Shown: positions 1-4,716 of the stretch, piece by piece | Position numbering within the stretch: position 1 is the first letter of the stretch | How the letters are laid out: every line of letters begins with the position of its first letter | DNA from: a virus | Virus record (IMG/VR): IMGVR_UViG_3300022187_000015 | Span: 1-29,519 of that record | Strand: one strand, 5' to 3' | Length of the DNA: 29,519 nucleotides | The notes under the pieces: generated by a model | Databases searched by the model: none | What the model saw: the letters and a program-made list of their open reading frames with translations, nothing else | Told to the model about the DNA's origin: nothing | Made by a program: the position numbers and the translations under genes

Positions 1-127
1 CGCCGTCTTGTTTGAGTTCTGGAAGCTCATCCAATAACGTACCGCCCGAAGTTGGGGTTCGTCATATGCCACGTCGCTCCATAGCGAGCCGCATCGACAA
101 AGTGGTCGTAGCCTGGCGCGGGCTCAT
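1..127. repeat. Terminal direct repeat, left copy
   Basis: These 127 bases are identical to the last 127 bases of the window (29393-29519). An exact overlap of this length at both contig ends is what a de Bruijn assembler leaves on a circular sequence, so the molecule closes and the unique length is 29,392 bp. The repeat holds the 3' end of the large terminase gene. It is more likely an assembly overlap than a biological terminal repeat, because 127 is a common maximum k-mer size. Confidence 0.95.
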
Positions 128-1187
128 TCAGCTGTCTGCCGTTCTTGTCCTCCCTCCACTTGTAGTTGCGAAGTTCCTTGATGCCGTTCACGCTGCTCCT
201 CGTAACCATCATGGGGCGTGACCGCAGGAAGTCGATGCCCGCACGAACGCTATCCCGTCCTTTCTTGCATGGGTGGATGTTGAACCCGTACCCGTGAATC
301 TGGTCTATGCTCTTCGGCTCAGCACTGTCCGCGATGATGGGGACAGTACGTGAGACCCCTTTCGCCTTCATCTCCTCTGCTATCTGCGCATTCGAGAGCC
401 CCGTGCTGTACAGCAGCTCCTCGAACAAAAAAGCGTGTCCGTCGCTCCACACCTCCACCAAGCAGCTGGGGTCATTGACGTACCCGAAGTCCAGCCCATA
501 TGCAATGAGCTTGAAGCCCTCTGGCTTGGAGTCCACCTCACGCCAGTGGGTTAAGCACAGAGCCCTGCTTACGCCTCTCTCCCCCAGACCGTAGACCCGC
601 CAGTAGTCTGGGTCAGCTTCCTTCAGTCTCTCAATCTCTGCCACCACTGCCTGAGGTAGGTGCGGATTGTCGAGGTAGGTCGTCTTGAAAAAGTCCATGT
701 CATCCCGCGTCAGTACATGGTCGTAAATCCAGTGGAACTCGTCCGACGGGTTGTAGTCAAGTATCGTCTTGGATGTGGTCCGCAGAATGAGCTGCCTGAA
801 GTCCTCCAACGTCAGCTCGTTAGCCTCGTTGATGAAGCATATGTCGCGCTTCCTGCCGCGAATCTTCTGCGGTTGGTCCACGCTGATGAACTCCACCATG
901 TTCCCCCACAGTATGTATGTCGATTCGGACTTGTTATGGTGACTGGCATTGTAGATGTCCTCCCTCTCCAATATCTCGAAAAAGTCCCGCATCACCGATG
1001 CCCGTACGCTGGGGAAGGTCTTGCGCACAATTGTCACCACCGCGCCCGCATTGTGATTGCGGTAGCACAGCTCAATAATCGCCATGAGTATGCTGTACGT
1101 CTTGCCTGAGCGAGTCCCTCCCTGGTGTACCTGTACTTTGGCCGTGCTTTGGGTAACGTGGTAGTATGTCTTGGCGAGTCCGCTCAA
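27..1187 (-). CDS. terL: Terminase large subunit
   Basis: This is the ATPase-nuclease that drives DNA into the prohead and cuts it. The 386-residue product has a Walker A motif GGTRSGKT at residues 23-30, a Walker B motif ICFINE at 116-121, and a C-terminal RNase H-like nuclease with candidate metal ligands D233 (GLDFGY), D287 (IADSAEP) and D361/D365 (YDHFVDAARYG). It looks full length for the compact Terminase_3/6 type. The only usable start is TTG at 1187, overlapping the upstream stop as TTGA; the next ATG lies inside the ATPase core, so translation is probably coupled. The small terminase subunit is one gene upstream. The gene converges by 11 bases on the plus-strand 25-residue peptide gene across the circle junction. 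Certain as a terminase; the packaging mode (cos or pac) cannot be read from this. Confidence 0.97.
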   Translation of the reverse strand: MSGLAKTYYHVTQSTAKVQVHQGGTRSGKTYSILMAIIELCYRNHNAGAVVTIVRKTFPSVRASVMRDFFEILEREDIYNASHHNKSESTYILWGNMVEFISVDQPQKIRGRKRDICFINEANELTLEDFRQLILRTTSKTILDYNPSDEFHWIYDHVLTRDDMDFFKTTYLDNPHLPQAVVAEIERLKEADPDYWRVYGLGERGVSRALCLTHWREVDSKPEGFKLIAYGLDFGYVNDPSCLVEVWSDGHAFLFEELLYSTGLSNAQIAEEMKAKGVSRTVPIIADSAEPKSIDQIHGYGFNIHPCKKGRDSVRAGIDFLRSRPMMVTRSSVNGIKELRNYKWREDKNGRQLNEPAPGYDHFVDAARYGATWHMTNPNFGRYVIG

Positions 1188-1417
1188 TCTCGTGCAATGA
1201 AGATGGGCGTTTTGTCACCGTGGTACGAGCCCAGCACATTGTAGTCCATCCATTCCTGAGCCTCCTCGTAAGCCCACCTGTTAGCCTTCATGAGTACCTG
1301 TATGCACTTCTCATAATCGTAGACCGCCACGACATTGCTGCCGACGGTATAGCCAATGAGAGCTGCGTCGAGTCCCTCTGCGAGCAGAGCCTCCGCATCT
1401 TCGAGTATATGCATCAT
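1184..1417 (-). CDS. Small conserved protein between TerS and TerL
   Basis: A 77-residue acidic protein that begins with ATG in an ATGA overlap with the small terminase stop and ends inside the TerL start. Its C-terminal half (AYEEAQEWMDYNVLGSY, then TPIFI) resembles small proteins often found beside terminase genes in aquatic phages, with a core of the form YEEA..WxxYNVxGxxxGxxTPxF. No catalytic motif or membrane segment is visible. Its position between the two terminase subunits suggests a packaging accessory role, which is inference. Function unknown. Confidence 0.75.
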   Translation of the reverse strand: MMHILEDAEALLAEGLDAALIGYTVGSNVVAVYDYEKCIQVLMKANRWAYEEAQEWMDYNVLGSYHGDKTPIFIARD

Positions 1418-1752
1418 GCTACTGTACTTGAATCATCCGTGAACCATGACAACGGCTTGCGCTCCGTCATCTCCACCTCTTGCCGCTCCACATAGCCCCG
1501 CGCCTTGCCTCGTGTCTTGAGGTAGAAAATAACCGCCGCTACGTTTCCATCTCTGATGGCCTTATGCAAGGAGCTCTCCGCAAAGTCCAGAGTCCTTTCG
1601 TGGATGAGGTTCACCGCATCCTTGTACTCTGTATCGCTCTTCATCCAGTTGTAGTGAGTCTGACGTGCGATGTTCGCCCTCTCACAAGCCGTGGTCACGA
1701 TGCCCAATGCCCTTTCGAGAGCTTCGAGCATGTCCTTTTTTTTGGTGTCCAT
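1414..1752 (-). CDS. terS: Terminase small subunit
   Basis: This 112-residue protein probably binds the packaging start site on DNA and hands it to TerL. The N-terminal 45 residues form a helix-turn-helix of the phage TerS kind (GIVTTACERANIARQTHYNWMK), followed by a helical oligomerisation region (DAVNLIHERTLDFAESSLHKAI, given here in two parts by function, then GNVAAVIFYLKT). The AVIFYLKTRGKARGY stretch is typical of small terminases of the phBC6A51 kind. ATG at 1752 was chosen over a TTG three codons upstream. It lies ten bases after the glycosyltransferase gene. Family assignment is strong from motifs and position. Confidence 0.9.
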   Translation of the reverse strand: MDTKKKDMLEALERALGIVTTACERANIARQTHYNWMKSDTEYKDAVNLIHERTLDFAESSLHKAIRDGNVAAVIFYLKTRGKARGYVERQEVEMTERKPLSWFTDDSSTVA

Positions 1753-1762
1753 TTTGTCCAAT

Positions 1763-2503
1763 TTATACCCCCTTCAGTGGGACTTTCAAAACGGGGTTAA
1801 AGTCAAAAGTTCTCTTGCTTCCCTTGTCTCTTGCAATCACATCCTTGCCCCACTTGCGCTGCAAGTCGAAGAACTGCTGTTTTTCCCTGTCCATGTTACG
1901 GTAGGTAGCACATCCTCCCTCTTGTTCTGCCTGTTTGACGACGTAGTGCGCGTAATTCACTCGCATGCATCCTCCGTACCTCTGGATGTGTTGCAACGTA
2001 AGGTCGTAATCCTCCTTCAGCGGGAGCTCTTCGTCATACCTGAGCTCGCTGCTTTTGAGGTGAGCTTGAAAGGGCCCGCCGATGTACTGCAAAGTGCCGA
2101 AAGGTGTGTATTCGCGATATGCTCCCTTGTCGGGGATGCAATTCAGCCCCCAGAAGTGGTAGCCCCATTCCTGACACATGCTCGCCCAGTTCTCACAGTA
2201 TTCCGTCAGCTCATCAGGCGACAACGTATGAGCAACCTGCTCCTGCCACACCTTGATAGCCGAGCAGTCATCATCGAGGAGCACGATGCAGTCGGCATCA
2301 TCGAATAGGTTGTCGAGCATCCAATTTCTTACGCGACACAAGTTGCCCTGAGCCGAGTCTGGGCACTCGATGATTTCGTTGCCATTCTTTCTGTACTCCT
2401 CCGCCTCCGATTCACGCACGACCAGCTGTACCTGTGGGTACGCCATCTGCGTCATGCTCTTCTCTGGCCGTCGGTAACTTGGGGCGAGGAACTTAATTCG
2501 CAT
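1763..2503 (-). CDS. GT-A glycosyltransferase, possibly DNA-modifying
   Basis: A 246-residue glycosyltransferase of the GT-A fold. It opens with the beta strand IKFLAPSYRRP, then QVQLVVRESEAEEY, the RVRN motif (57-60), the metal/nucleotide-sugar binding acidic triad DDD at 77-79 (VLLDDDCS), and a catalytic-type acidic motif KEDYD at 163-167. This arrangement resembles the phage TET-associated glycosyltransferase (TAGT) group proposed to sugar-modify oxidised bases. The gene overlaps the ParB-like gene by 11 bases and precedes terS, a place where DNA could be modified just before packaging. No oxygenase, hydroxymethylase or thymidylate-synthase-like gene is visible anywhere in the circle, so the acceptor is unknown and could equally be a protein or glycan. 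Glycosyltransferase: confident; DNA as substrate: inference. Confidence 0.82.
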   Translation of the reverse strand: MRIKFLAPSYRRPEKSMTQMAYPQVQLVVRESEAEEYRKNGNEIIECPDSAQGNLCRVRNWMLDNLFDDADCIVLLDDDCSAIKVWQEQVAHTLSPDELTEYCENWASMCQEWGYHFWGLNCIPDKGAYREYTPFGTLQYIGGPFQAHLKSSELRYDEELPLKEDYDLTLQHIQRYGGCMRVNYAHYVVKQAEQEGGCATYRNMDREKQQFFDLQRKWGKDVIARDKGSKRTFDFNPVLKVPLKGV

Positions 2504-3116
2504 TTTGCAGCTTTTTAAGTGCTTTCACTCCATCCACCACACGGCCAATGCCGCTGCTCCAGGGCTTGCCATTAGCCCGTTTAGCGGTCTCCGTGCCCAG
2601 TCCGAGCAGGGTCTTGGCTTGAATCCAATCTATGTCCGTTTCAAATTTGAGCACGACGTAATTGTGCTCTCTGTCAATCTCCGTAGCAAACGGGTGCTCG
2701 GTCTCTGCATTGTCTGGGTTGCCCATCTCCTCCAGCTCATCCTTGCTGAAAGGTAGAGGTAAGCCCCACTGGTCCAGCTCCTCTACGTCCCATTCATTTG
2801 CCAGGATGTCCCAGTCCCAGTCACCAAAGCCCACGTTGTCTTTGATGATGAATTGCCGCCGCTCCTCCTCAGTCATGTCGGCTACCTTCATCACTGGAAC
2901 TTCCGTGATGCCCAGGGCCCGCAGAGCCTTCAGCCTCATGTTGCCGCCCACCACTACGTTGTCTTTGTCCACCACGAGCGGACGCAGGTTCAGCATGTCA
3001 GGGAATTTGTCAATGCTGTCCTTCAGCTTGTTGAACTGCACCTTGCTGATGGTGCGTGGATTGTTTTCGTTGGCCTTGATGTCGGCCACCTTCATTTTGC
3101 TTGCCTTGCTCTTCAT
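2493..3116 (-). CDS. ParB/sulfiredoxin-like nuclease-domain protein
   Basis: The N-terminal 100 residues are a ParB-type domain: ANENNPRTIS (15-24), FNKLKDSIDKFP, LRPLVV, and the phosphate-binding GGNMR motif (57-61), followed by LKALRALGITEVPV. The region after residue 90 (IKDNVGFGDWDWDILANEWD) is typical of phage ParB proteins encoded beside methylases or other DNA-modifying enzymes. The C-terminal 70 residues (VVLKFETDIDWIQAK onwards) form a separate unrecognised domain. The start is ATG in an ATGA overlap with the upstream stop, and the gene runs into the glycosyltransferase. Family knowledge suggests DNA binding or nicking; a role in guiding the glycosyltransferase is inference. No second partition gene is present, so plasmid-type segregation is unlikely. 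Confidence 0.88.
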   Translation of the reverse strand: MKSKASKMKVADIKANENNPRTISKVQFNKLKDSIDKFPDMLNLRPLVVDKDNVVVGGNMRLKALRALGITEVPVMKVADMTEEERRQFIIKDNVGFGDWDWDILANEWDVEELDQWGLPLPFSKDELEEMGNPDNAETEHPFATEIDREHNYVVLKFETDIDWIQAKTLLGLGTETAKRANGKPWSSGIGRVVDGVKALKKLQNAN

Positions 3117-3868: not shown

Positions 3869-4334
3869 ATTTGAGTAGTTTCTTCGTTCTGTTGACTACG
3901 TTGTAAAGTACCGTAGGGTTTATGCCCGTCTGTTGCGCTACCTCCTGCATGTTCCATCCATCTATGTACAGCCGCATTACAGTCTGTTCAAACCAGGGCA
4001 GTCTGTCCAGCACAATCTCGATGCGCTCCAGCTTCAACAGTCGTCCATCATCGAGGAAAGGTCTGTCCTGTATTCTCTCCACATGCTCCCTGCTACGCAG
4101 CTTGTGTTTTTTGTGATACTGCCCCCTGGTATACTCCGTCCACATCGCTGCCTTGAAGTATGCCGTCGGTTTTCTCATGACTGCCGCCGCCTTTGCGTCA
4201 CATACCTTGTCCACGCGCATGAACGTATGGTGCACCAGCTCATTCGGTTCAGGACAGTATGCAGCAGCTTCAATCAATGCCTCGTAGTTTTCTGCGAACC
4301 ATTTACGCCAGTCCTTTTGACTCTGCAAGCTCAC
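3849..4334 (-). CDS. Sigma-factor-like protein (region 4 HTH)
   Basis: A 161-residue protein with the layout of a small sigma-70-family factor. The N-terminal half (WFAENYEALIEAAA, HHTFMRVDK, then PTAYFKAAMWTEYTR) looks like an ECF region 2. The C-terminal 55 residues are a region-4 helix-turn-helix: VLDRLPWFEQTVMRLYIDG, then NMQEVAQQTGINPTVLYNVV. Its probable role is to redirect host RNA polymerase, for example to late promoters. The start is GTG at 4334 overlapping the NinG stop; a TTG two codons later is an alternative. If real, it is the best candidate for the early-late switch. It could instead be a terminase-like or generic HTH protein; the helix pattern argues for sigma. Confidence 0.68.
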   Translation of the reverse strand: MSLQSQKDWRKWFAENYEALIEAAAYCPEPNELVHHTFMRVDKVCDAKAAAVMRKPTAYFKAAMWTEYTRGQYHKKHKLRSREHVERIQDRPFLDDGRLLKLERIEIVLDRLPWFEQTVMRLYIDGWNMQEVAQQTGINPTVLYNVVNRTKKLLKYVYSKK

Positions 4335-4716
4335 GGGCTAAGCGCTCAAAGTGTTGGCACATAGCCTTGAGTTCATCCCCCGTGAACTTGCGTATATGCT
4401 TAGATTTGTGGAGCACTGCTTCAGCAGTCCCCTCTCCGTACTTCTCGTCGATGGCCCTGCCGTGCTCGAACTGCCGCCCAGACAAAAAGCCATTGCACCG
4501 CTTACACTGCAGGTGAGCATTCTGCTCATCCCATCGAGTGCTGCGACAAGCCCGTGTGATGAAGTGACCGCAGTCCGCTTCCGTATAGTGTCGGTTGGCG
4601 CCACAGGTGATGCAATTCCCGTAGCCATCATCATCGGAGTCACGTAACCGCACATACCTGCTGAATGCTGTGTCAAGTTTTTTTTCAAGACTGCTCCTGC
4701 TCCGTTTTTTGCTCAT
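4303..4716 (-). CDS. ninG: NinG/Rap-like recombination nuclease
   Basis: A 137-residue protein matching the lambda NinG (Rap) pattern. It has an N-terminal basic helix, CITCG at 35-39, the metal-site motif DCGHFI at 48-53, TRWDEQNAHLQC at 60-71, CKRCNGFLSG at 71-80 and AIDEKYG at 89-94. In lambda this protein is a Holliday-junction endonuclease in Red recombination. Here it would resolve branched replication or recombination intermediates before packaging. ATG at 4716 was chosen because upstream in-frame sequence lies inside the previous gene; the overlap with that gene is 32 bases. All zinc-binding cysteines and the DCGH core are intact. Confident in the family; the pathway in this phage is inferred, since no annealing protein is recognisable. 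Confidence 0.9.
   Translation of the reverse strand: MSKKRSRSSLEKKLDTAFSRYVRLRDSDDDGYGNCITCGANRHYTEADCGHFITRACRSTRWDEQNAHLQCKRCNGFLSGRQFEHGRAIDEKYGEGTAEAVLHKSKHIRKFTGDELKAMCQHFERLARELAESKGLA

What the first reader, a model, noticed from the sequence alone, without database searches (positions are those of the whole stretch)
1763..3116. ParB-like protein plus glycosyltransferase: a possible DNA-decoration pair without its usual partner
An overlapping ParB-domain gene and a GT-A glycosyltransferase with RVRN, DDD and KEDYD motifs lie directly upstream of the terminase genes. In known phage hypermodification systems the TAGT-type transferase works with a TET/JBP oxygenase or hydroxymethylpyrimidine synthesis; neither is visible in this complete genome. 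Either the sugar acceptor is different (host-made base, protein, teichoic-like glycan), or one of the unknown small proteins makes the acceptor. Strong palindrome avoidance argues against fully protected DNA, which adds tension to the idea.
Basis: partly seen in the sequence, partly recalled or inferred. Interest (0 to 1): 0.75.

Follow-up and report, generated by a model that had tools for sequence, protein, structure and literature searches.

The report
ParB-guided phage DNA glycosyltransferase cassette
A small phage carries a two-gene unit, a DNA-binding-type ParB protein and a sugar-transferring enzyme, in the genome slot where its relatives keep DNA-modifying enzymes; the pair is always inherited together across very different bacterial hosts and lacks any enzyme to prepare the DNA for the sugar, so it probably attaches sugar to viral DNA by an undescribed route.

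Summary
The 246-aa protein is a bona fide TAGT (Pfam PF20691 over cut-off; AF2 model pLDDT 94; nearest viral folds are TAGTs, including a T-even enzyme). The 207-aa protein is a ParB N-domain plus an undescribed ~80-aa C-terminal domain (CTD).

In 245 related loci no assessable counterexample was found: ParB-CTD always precedes TAGT, usually overlapping, ahead of the terminase. They are the only genes in all 18 near-complete TAGT phage genomes. TET/JBP and hydroxymethylase families are absent from all 18, with positive controls.

Decisive context: phages with the closest terminases lack this TAGT, but in the same ParB-to-terminase slot carry ParB-MTase fusions, Mom, or TET/JBP plus amino acid:DNA transferase and kinase sets, and the ParB tail changes with the partner. 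The slot is thus an exchangeable DNA-modification slot, and DNA is the likely TAGT target. Hosts span many phyla, so an envelope acceptor is unlikely. No other conserved phage gene could make an acceptor, so the sugar probably goes on a canonical base or a universal host feature. This is inference; no chemistry was tested. Palindrome avoidance is real but occurs in TET-bearing sisters too, so it does not discriminate.

The parts
1763..2503 (-). TAGT glycosyltransferase, 246 aa, GT-A fold
   Evidence: Pfam PF20691 2e-9, PHROG 842 3e-15; AF2 pLDDT 94.1, pTM 0.91; BFVD nearest folds are TAGTs
2493..3116 (-). ParB-like protein, 207 aa: ParB/Srx N-domain plus TAGT-specific C-terminal domain
   Evidence: PHROG 498/620; profile matches ParB structures 4umk 2e-12 and 6sdk 3e-11; model fold matches ParB/Noc/sulfiredoxin
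2496..2735 (-). ParB C-terminal domain (aa 128-207), marker of the TAGT-paired ParBs
   Evidence: Alignment of 21 diverse copies; among 50,697 phage records found only in Javan291, the one record with this TAGT
2324..2335 (-). RVRN motif (aa 57-60)
   Evidence: N60 invariant, R57 and R59 at 90% or more of 107 sequences
2267..2275 (-). DDD (DXD-type metal/nucleotide-sugar) motif (aa 77-79)
   Evidence: invariant in 107 sequences
2003..2017 (-). KEDYD motif (aa 163-167), candidate catalytic xED
   Evidence: D167 invariant, K163-Y166 at 90% or more
1414..1761 (-). terminase small subunit, 115 aa, directly downstream
   Evidence: PHROG 309 1e-8
27..1187 (-). terminase large subunit, 386 aa
   Evidence: Pfam Terminase_3 3e-25

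Best explanation
The pair is a two-gene DNA-glycosylation cassette. ParB binds phage DNA through its NTP-switch N-domain and recruits TAGT through its dedicated C-terminal domain. TAGT, a metal-dependent GT-A enzyme with an xED-type (probably inverting) active site, transfers a host nucleotide sugar onto phage DNA late in infection, around packaging. No phage enzyme prepares an acceptor, so the sugar probably goes onto a canonical base (an exocyclic amine by analogy with the Mom and N6/N4-MTase cassettes of the same slot) or onto a universal host-made feature. Shown: fold and family, active-site conservation, pairing with a specific CTD, absence of acceptor enzymes, and the shared slot with DNA-modification enzymes. 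Inferred: DNA as target, ParB as guide, CTD-TAGT contact, the acceptor atom, the timing.
For: TAGT family by sequence and fold: (BFVD top hits of TM about 0.7-0.86 are mostly annotated TAGTs, including Klebsiella phage PKO111 beta-glucosyl-HMC-alpha-GT; generic GT2 fall to about 0.5). Pairing: 207 strict ParB-CTD/TAGT pairs in 245 loci and no assessable counterexample. Universality of only these two genes in 18 genomes. CTD identity tracks TAGT (Spearman 0.39) better than the ParB N-domain does (0.11). Slot replacement: 80 closest-terminase loci have 18 ParB-N6/N4 MTase fusions, 7 with Mom, 7 with TET/JBP (6 of them with ADDT and kinase), 0 with TAGT, and the ParB tail differs by partner. Published precedent: phage CaiB genes 1-5 before the terminase are ParB, TET/JBP, pyrophosphorylase and kinase (PMC9302106). 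Extra genes between ParB and TAGT in some loci are a second TAGT, FkbM and other SAM methyltransferases, or a radical SAM-SPASM enzyme, as expected for building up a sugar. Purifying selection: pN about 0.15 with synonymous sites saturated.
Against: The only TAGT substrate described in the papers I could read (T2/T6) is a sugar already on hmC; no TAGT known to me glycosylates an unmodified base. No ParB-TAGT fusion exists in 245 loci. CTD-TAGT contact is not tested, and the CTD is modelled only moderately well (pLDDT about 50-87). Palindrome avoidance shows that the DNA is not fully protected.
Confidence: 0.68

Rival explanations
1. The sugar goes onto a host-made base modification (a product of host DNA methylation or oxidation), not onto a canonical base; ParB still guides TAGT to DNA.
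For: Known TAGT substrates carry a hydroxyl on the modified base or its sugar; some TAGT phages carry C5, N6/N4 or Dam methyltransferases.
Against: MTases are present in only a minority; TET/JBP is absent from the four host genomes searched; hosts span many phyla, so a shared unusual base is unlikely.
Confidence: 0.12
2. TAGT glycosylates a protein: its partner ParB, the neighbouring terminase, or a virion protein.
For: The two genes are inseparable, so ParB could be the substrate; the terminase is nearly always next; PDB fold matches include protein-directed GT-A enzymes.
Against: The nearest folds among viral proteins are TAGTs; the slot holds DNA-modifying enzymes in sister phages; terminase type varies while the pair stays; terminase and capsid families are not universal in the TAGT phages.
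Confidence: 0.13
3. TAGT modifies an envelope or teichoic-type glycan, for example to block superinfection.
For: GT-A folds commonly do this; other glycosyltransferases lie upstream in a few loci.
Against: The pair occurs with Gram-negative and Gram-positive hosts and in code-25 phages, whose hosts have unrelated envelopes; the DNA-modification slot and the ParB partner do not fit.
Confidence: 0.03

Closest known systems
T2/T6-type TAGT (beta-glucosyl-HMC-alpha-glucosyltransferase, PF20691, PHROG 842)
   Same: Same family by Pfam/PHROG, aligned core motifs (PSY.R, DDD, ED, GG..RN), fold TM about 0.78 to the Klebsiella phage PKO111 homologue
   Different: In the T-even-like phage CC31 the enzyme lies beside dCMP hydroxymethylase and beta-GT; here none of these exist and ParB is the obligatory neighbour. 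ParB-paired TAGTs form their own clade, 99/96 support, with the caveat of a long T-even branch
ParB + TET/JBP + ADDT/pyrophosphorylase + kinase cassettes before the terminase (phages CaiB and Tonitrus; sister loci L343, L364, L369)
   Same: Same kind of position and a ParB first gene (PMC9302106, PMC11955845)
   Different: They carry a thymine-oxidation pathway and a different ParB tail; the window has one transferase and no oxygenase
ParB-N6/N4 DNA methyltransferase fusions and ParB + Mom pairs
   Same: Same slot and same ParB N-domain family; single-enzyme cassettes without acceptor synthesis
   Different: Methyl or Mom-type chemistry, not sugar; fused or other ParB tails
Solitary phage TAGTs (288 of 753 GT-bearing phage genomes; PMC13216743)
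   Same: TAGT without alpha-GT or beta-GT, function noted there as unknown
   Different: That paper does not mention ParB; whether this clade is among its 288 was not checked

Membership tests
TAGT (PF20691) | Profile match over curated cut-off | tested here: met
   38.1 bits against cut-off 27.5, E=2.1e-9
TAGT (PF20691) | GT-A fold with conserved DXD-type and ED motifs | tested here: met
   AF2 model, PDB GT-A matches, motif conservation
TAGT (PF20691) | Genomic association with TET/JBP or hydroxymethylpyrimidine synthesis | tested here: not met
   0 of 18 genomes with PF12851 while 4 of 4 TET phages ring; 0 of 18 with PF00303 while CC31 rings. This is a usual association, not a required family feature
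TAGT (PF20691) | Transfers a sugar onto modified DNA | not testable with these tools
   Needs biochemistry
ParB/Srx (ParB-CTPase) fold | ParB N-domain with the G..R nucleotide motif | tested here: met
   Profile to ParB structures 2e-12; G58 invariant, R61 at 90% or more; fold search ParB/Noc
ParABS partition ParB | HTH DNA-binding domain and ParA partner | tested here: not met
   No HTH Pfam match in the protein and no ParA among the window ORFs scanned
Pre-terminase ParB DNA-modification cassette | ParB directly followed by modification enzyme(s), then the terminase | tested here: met
   that TAGT modifies DNA is inferred

The most novel reading that the evidence does not exclude
TAGT with its ParB adaptor glycosylates a canonical DNA base directly (for example an exocyclic amine), a new class of DNA modification that needs no pre-oxidised or hydroxymethylated base, with ParB serving as a general guide subunit whose tail is swapped to match the modifying enzyme.
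Probability: 0.35. Interest if true: 0.9.

Novelty: new variant of a known kind. Interest (0 to 1): 0.68.

Why it matters
Known phage sugar-DNA systems first make a hydroxylated base. Here a widespread two-gene unit has no such step, yet occupies a DNA-modification slot. It may reveal direct base glycosylation, and it suggests a testable role for the unexplained ParB proteins next to phage DNA-modification genes. It also gives part of the solitary phage TAGTs a concrete partner.

Tried and rejected
Conserved small protein as acceptor maker: rejected, since only ParB and TAGT are universal in 18 genomes. Teichoic or envelope glycan: unlikely from host range. ParB-TAGT fusion: none in 245 loci. 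Palindrome avoidance as evidence against DNA modification: dropped, because the TET phages G032 and G033 also avoid sites. PDB sequence search with the TAGT profile: no relative. The PDB fold search gave only generic GT-A matches and so no acceptor information. The CTD has no convincing sequence relative in the PDB. The first TET/JBP search had no positive control and was repeated with one. The Iyer 2013 paper that probably discusses ParB and TAGT neighbourhoods is not held. dN/dS could not be given because synonymous sites are saturated. A long-branch warning limits the tree.

Full report
What is there. On the minus strand the window reads ParB (2493-3116), TAGT (1763-2503), TerS (1414-1761), TerL (27-1187), with an 11-nt overlap between the first two and a 1-nt gap before TerS. 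The genome is a complete 29.5-kb contig with a 127-bp terminal repeat. TAGT scores over the Pfam cut-off (2e-9) and hits PHROG 842, the T2/T6 beta-glucosyl-HMC-alpha-glucosyltransferase (3e-15); the ParB protein hits ParB-methyltransferase and ParB-like PHROGs (1e-31, 3e-28).

Family and fold. A profile of 107 relatives finds the CC31 T-even-like TAGT across the core motifs. The AF2 model has pLDDT 94.1 and pTM 0.91. Against predicted viral structures the best matches are mostly annotated TAGTs (TM about 0.7-0.86, including the Klebsiella phage PKO111 enzyme), with a gap to generic GT2 proteins at about 0.5. Solved structures give only generic GT-A folds. The DDD residues, N60 and D167 are invariant and the rest of RVRN and KEDYD is conserved at 90% or more, apart from V58, so the enzyme is probably active. 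Close relatives differ mainly at saturated synonymous sites.

The pair. In 245 loci from viral contigs and bacterial genomes, ParB with a specific C-terminal domain (NNYxVLKFDxDIDWxQAxTLF...GxGRVxxG) lies upstream of TAGT: 207 strict pairs, usually with 4-, 8-, 11- or 17-nt overlaps, never fused. The remainder have an inserted gene, a second TAGT, stop codons read in another code, a gene-call or frame problem, or a contig end; one (L274) cannot be judged because another gene and then the contig end precede TAGT. The CTD appears in one of 50,697 phage records, Streptococcus phage Javan291, which is also the only record with this TAGT. CTD identity follows TAGT identity better than the ParB N-domain does (Spearman 0.39 against 0.11). 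These are correlations, not proof of contact.

No acceptor pathway. In 18 near-complete genomes ParB and TAGT are the only families present in all (BLAST clustering, so very divergent proteins could be missed). TET/JBP is absent from all 18 and from four searched host genomes, while the same search finds it in 4 of 4 sister phages. Thymidylate synthase/hydroxymethylase is absent from all 18 and from Javan291 but found in CC31. DNA methyltransferases occur in a minority.

The slot. The 80 best loci for the window's terminase (68-74% identity) do not carry this TAGT. Sixty-nine of them have a ParB of the same N-domain family without the TAGT-type CTD. Beside or fused to it are N6/N4 DNA methyltransferase (18 fusions), Mom (7 loci; L329 1.6e-48), TET/JBP (7 loci; L335 6.5e-18) with amino acid:DNA transferase (L324 3e-18) and P-loop kinase in 6, or nothing recognised (35, many with a CxxC tail CKHCEKMIP). 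Some loci are near-copies and partner hits were counted anywhere in the locus, so the numbers are a census, not independent events. None of the Mom, TET, ADDT, kinase or PLP seeds matches any ORF in the 245 TAGT loci. Published phage genomes describe the TET version in the same place: CaiB genes 1-5 precede the terminase (PMC9302106) and Tonitrus has a like set as its first genes (PMC11955845). ParB proteins near other DNA-modification genes have been noted as functionally unclear (PMC12783734).

Elaboration. In about a dozen loci a gene sits between ParB and TAGT: a second TAGT (L086, L193, L195, L202), FkbM-type methyltransferase (L095, L185), other SAM methyltransferases (L192, L197, L201, L203, L238) or a radical SAM-SPASM protein (L200). 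These would fit decoration of a sugar already attached; that is inference.

Host range. Prophage or contig hosts include Bacteroidota, Lentisphaerota, Negativicutes, Planctomycetota, Spirochaetota, Verrucomicrobiota (several are metagenome bins) and Streptococcus. In L248 five in-frame TGA codons fall on conserved glycines of TAGT and reading TGA as Gly restores it, pointing to code-25 hosts. So a lineage-specific envelope acceptor is improbable.

Palindromes. The window has GATC 0 (expected 90), CCGG 4 (86), CTAG 1 (31). Other TAGT phages avoid other sites. Since the sister G032 with TET, ADDT, kinase and PLP genes also has CTAG 0 of 42 and GATC 0 of 39, avoidance argues only against complete protection and not against modification.

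Verdict. ParB-TAGT is best read as a DNA-glycosylation cassette of an exchangeable pre-terminase DNA-modification slot. That is a new variant of a known kind; direct glycosylation of a canonical base would be new, and is not shown.

Noticed in passing
window, whole: GATC is absent (0 against about 90 expected), CCGG 4 against 86 and CTAG 1 against 31, suggesting past restriction pressure.
   Followed up: yes
L292-L317 and others: Sister phages carry ParB with a short conserved CxxC tail (CKHCEKMIP) and no recognised partner enzyme before TerS.
   Followed up: partly
L354:3311-4054 and 4033-4452: An ABC-type ATPase and a GNAT-like protein follow ParB in the same slot: a possible further DNA-modification set.
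   Followed up: no
L248:8001-8759, L249: TAGT has in-frame TGA codons at conserved glycines, so these phages likely use genetic code 25.
   Followed up: yes
L086, L193, L195, L202: Two TAGT genes in tandem after ParB; the extra copy in L193 scores better against PHROG 842 (1e-18) than the window's TAGT does.
   Followed up: partly
L278:7481-8029: A P-loop kinase-like 183-aa protein without Pfam or PHROG match lies between ParB and TAGT.
   Followed up: no
L082:11411-12001: The Javan291 gene annotated 'DNA modification methylase' is a ParB-CTD protein with no methyltransferase part visible: a likely misannotation.
   Followed up: yes
L083:6435-8627: Upstream of ParB lie an LpxA-like acyltransferase and two glycosyltransferase-like genes (read by eye from the sequence) in a Chitinophagaceae contig.
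   Followed up: no
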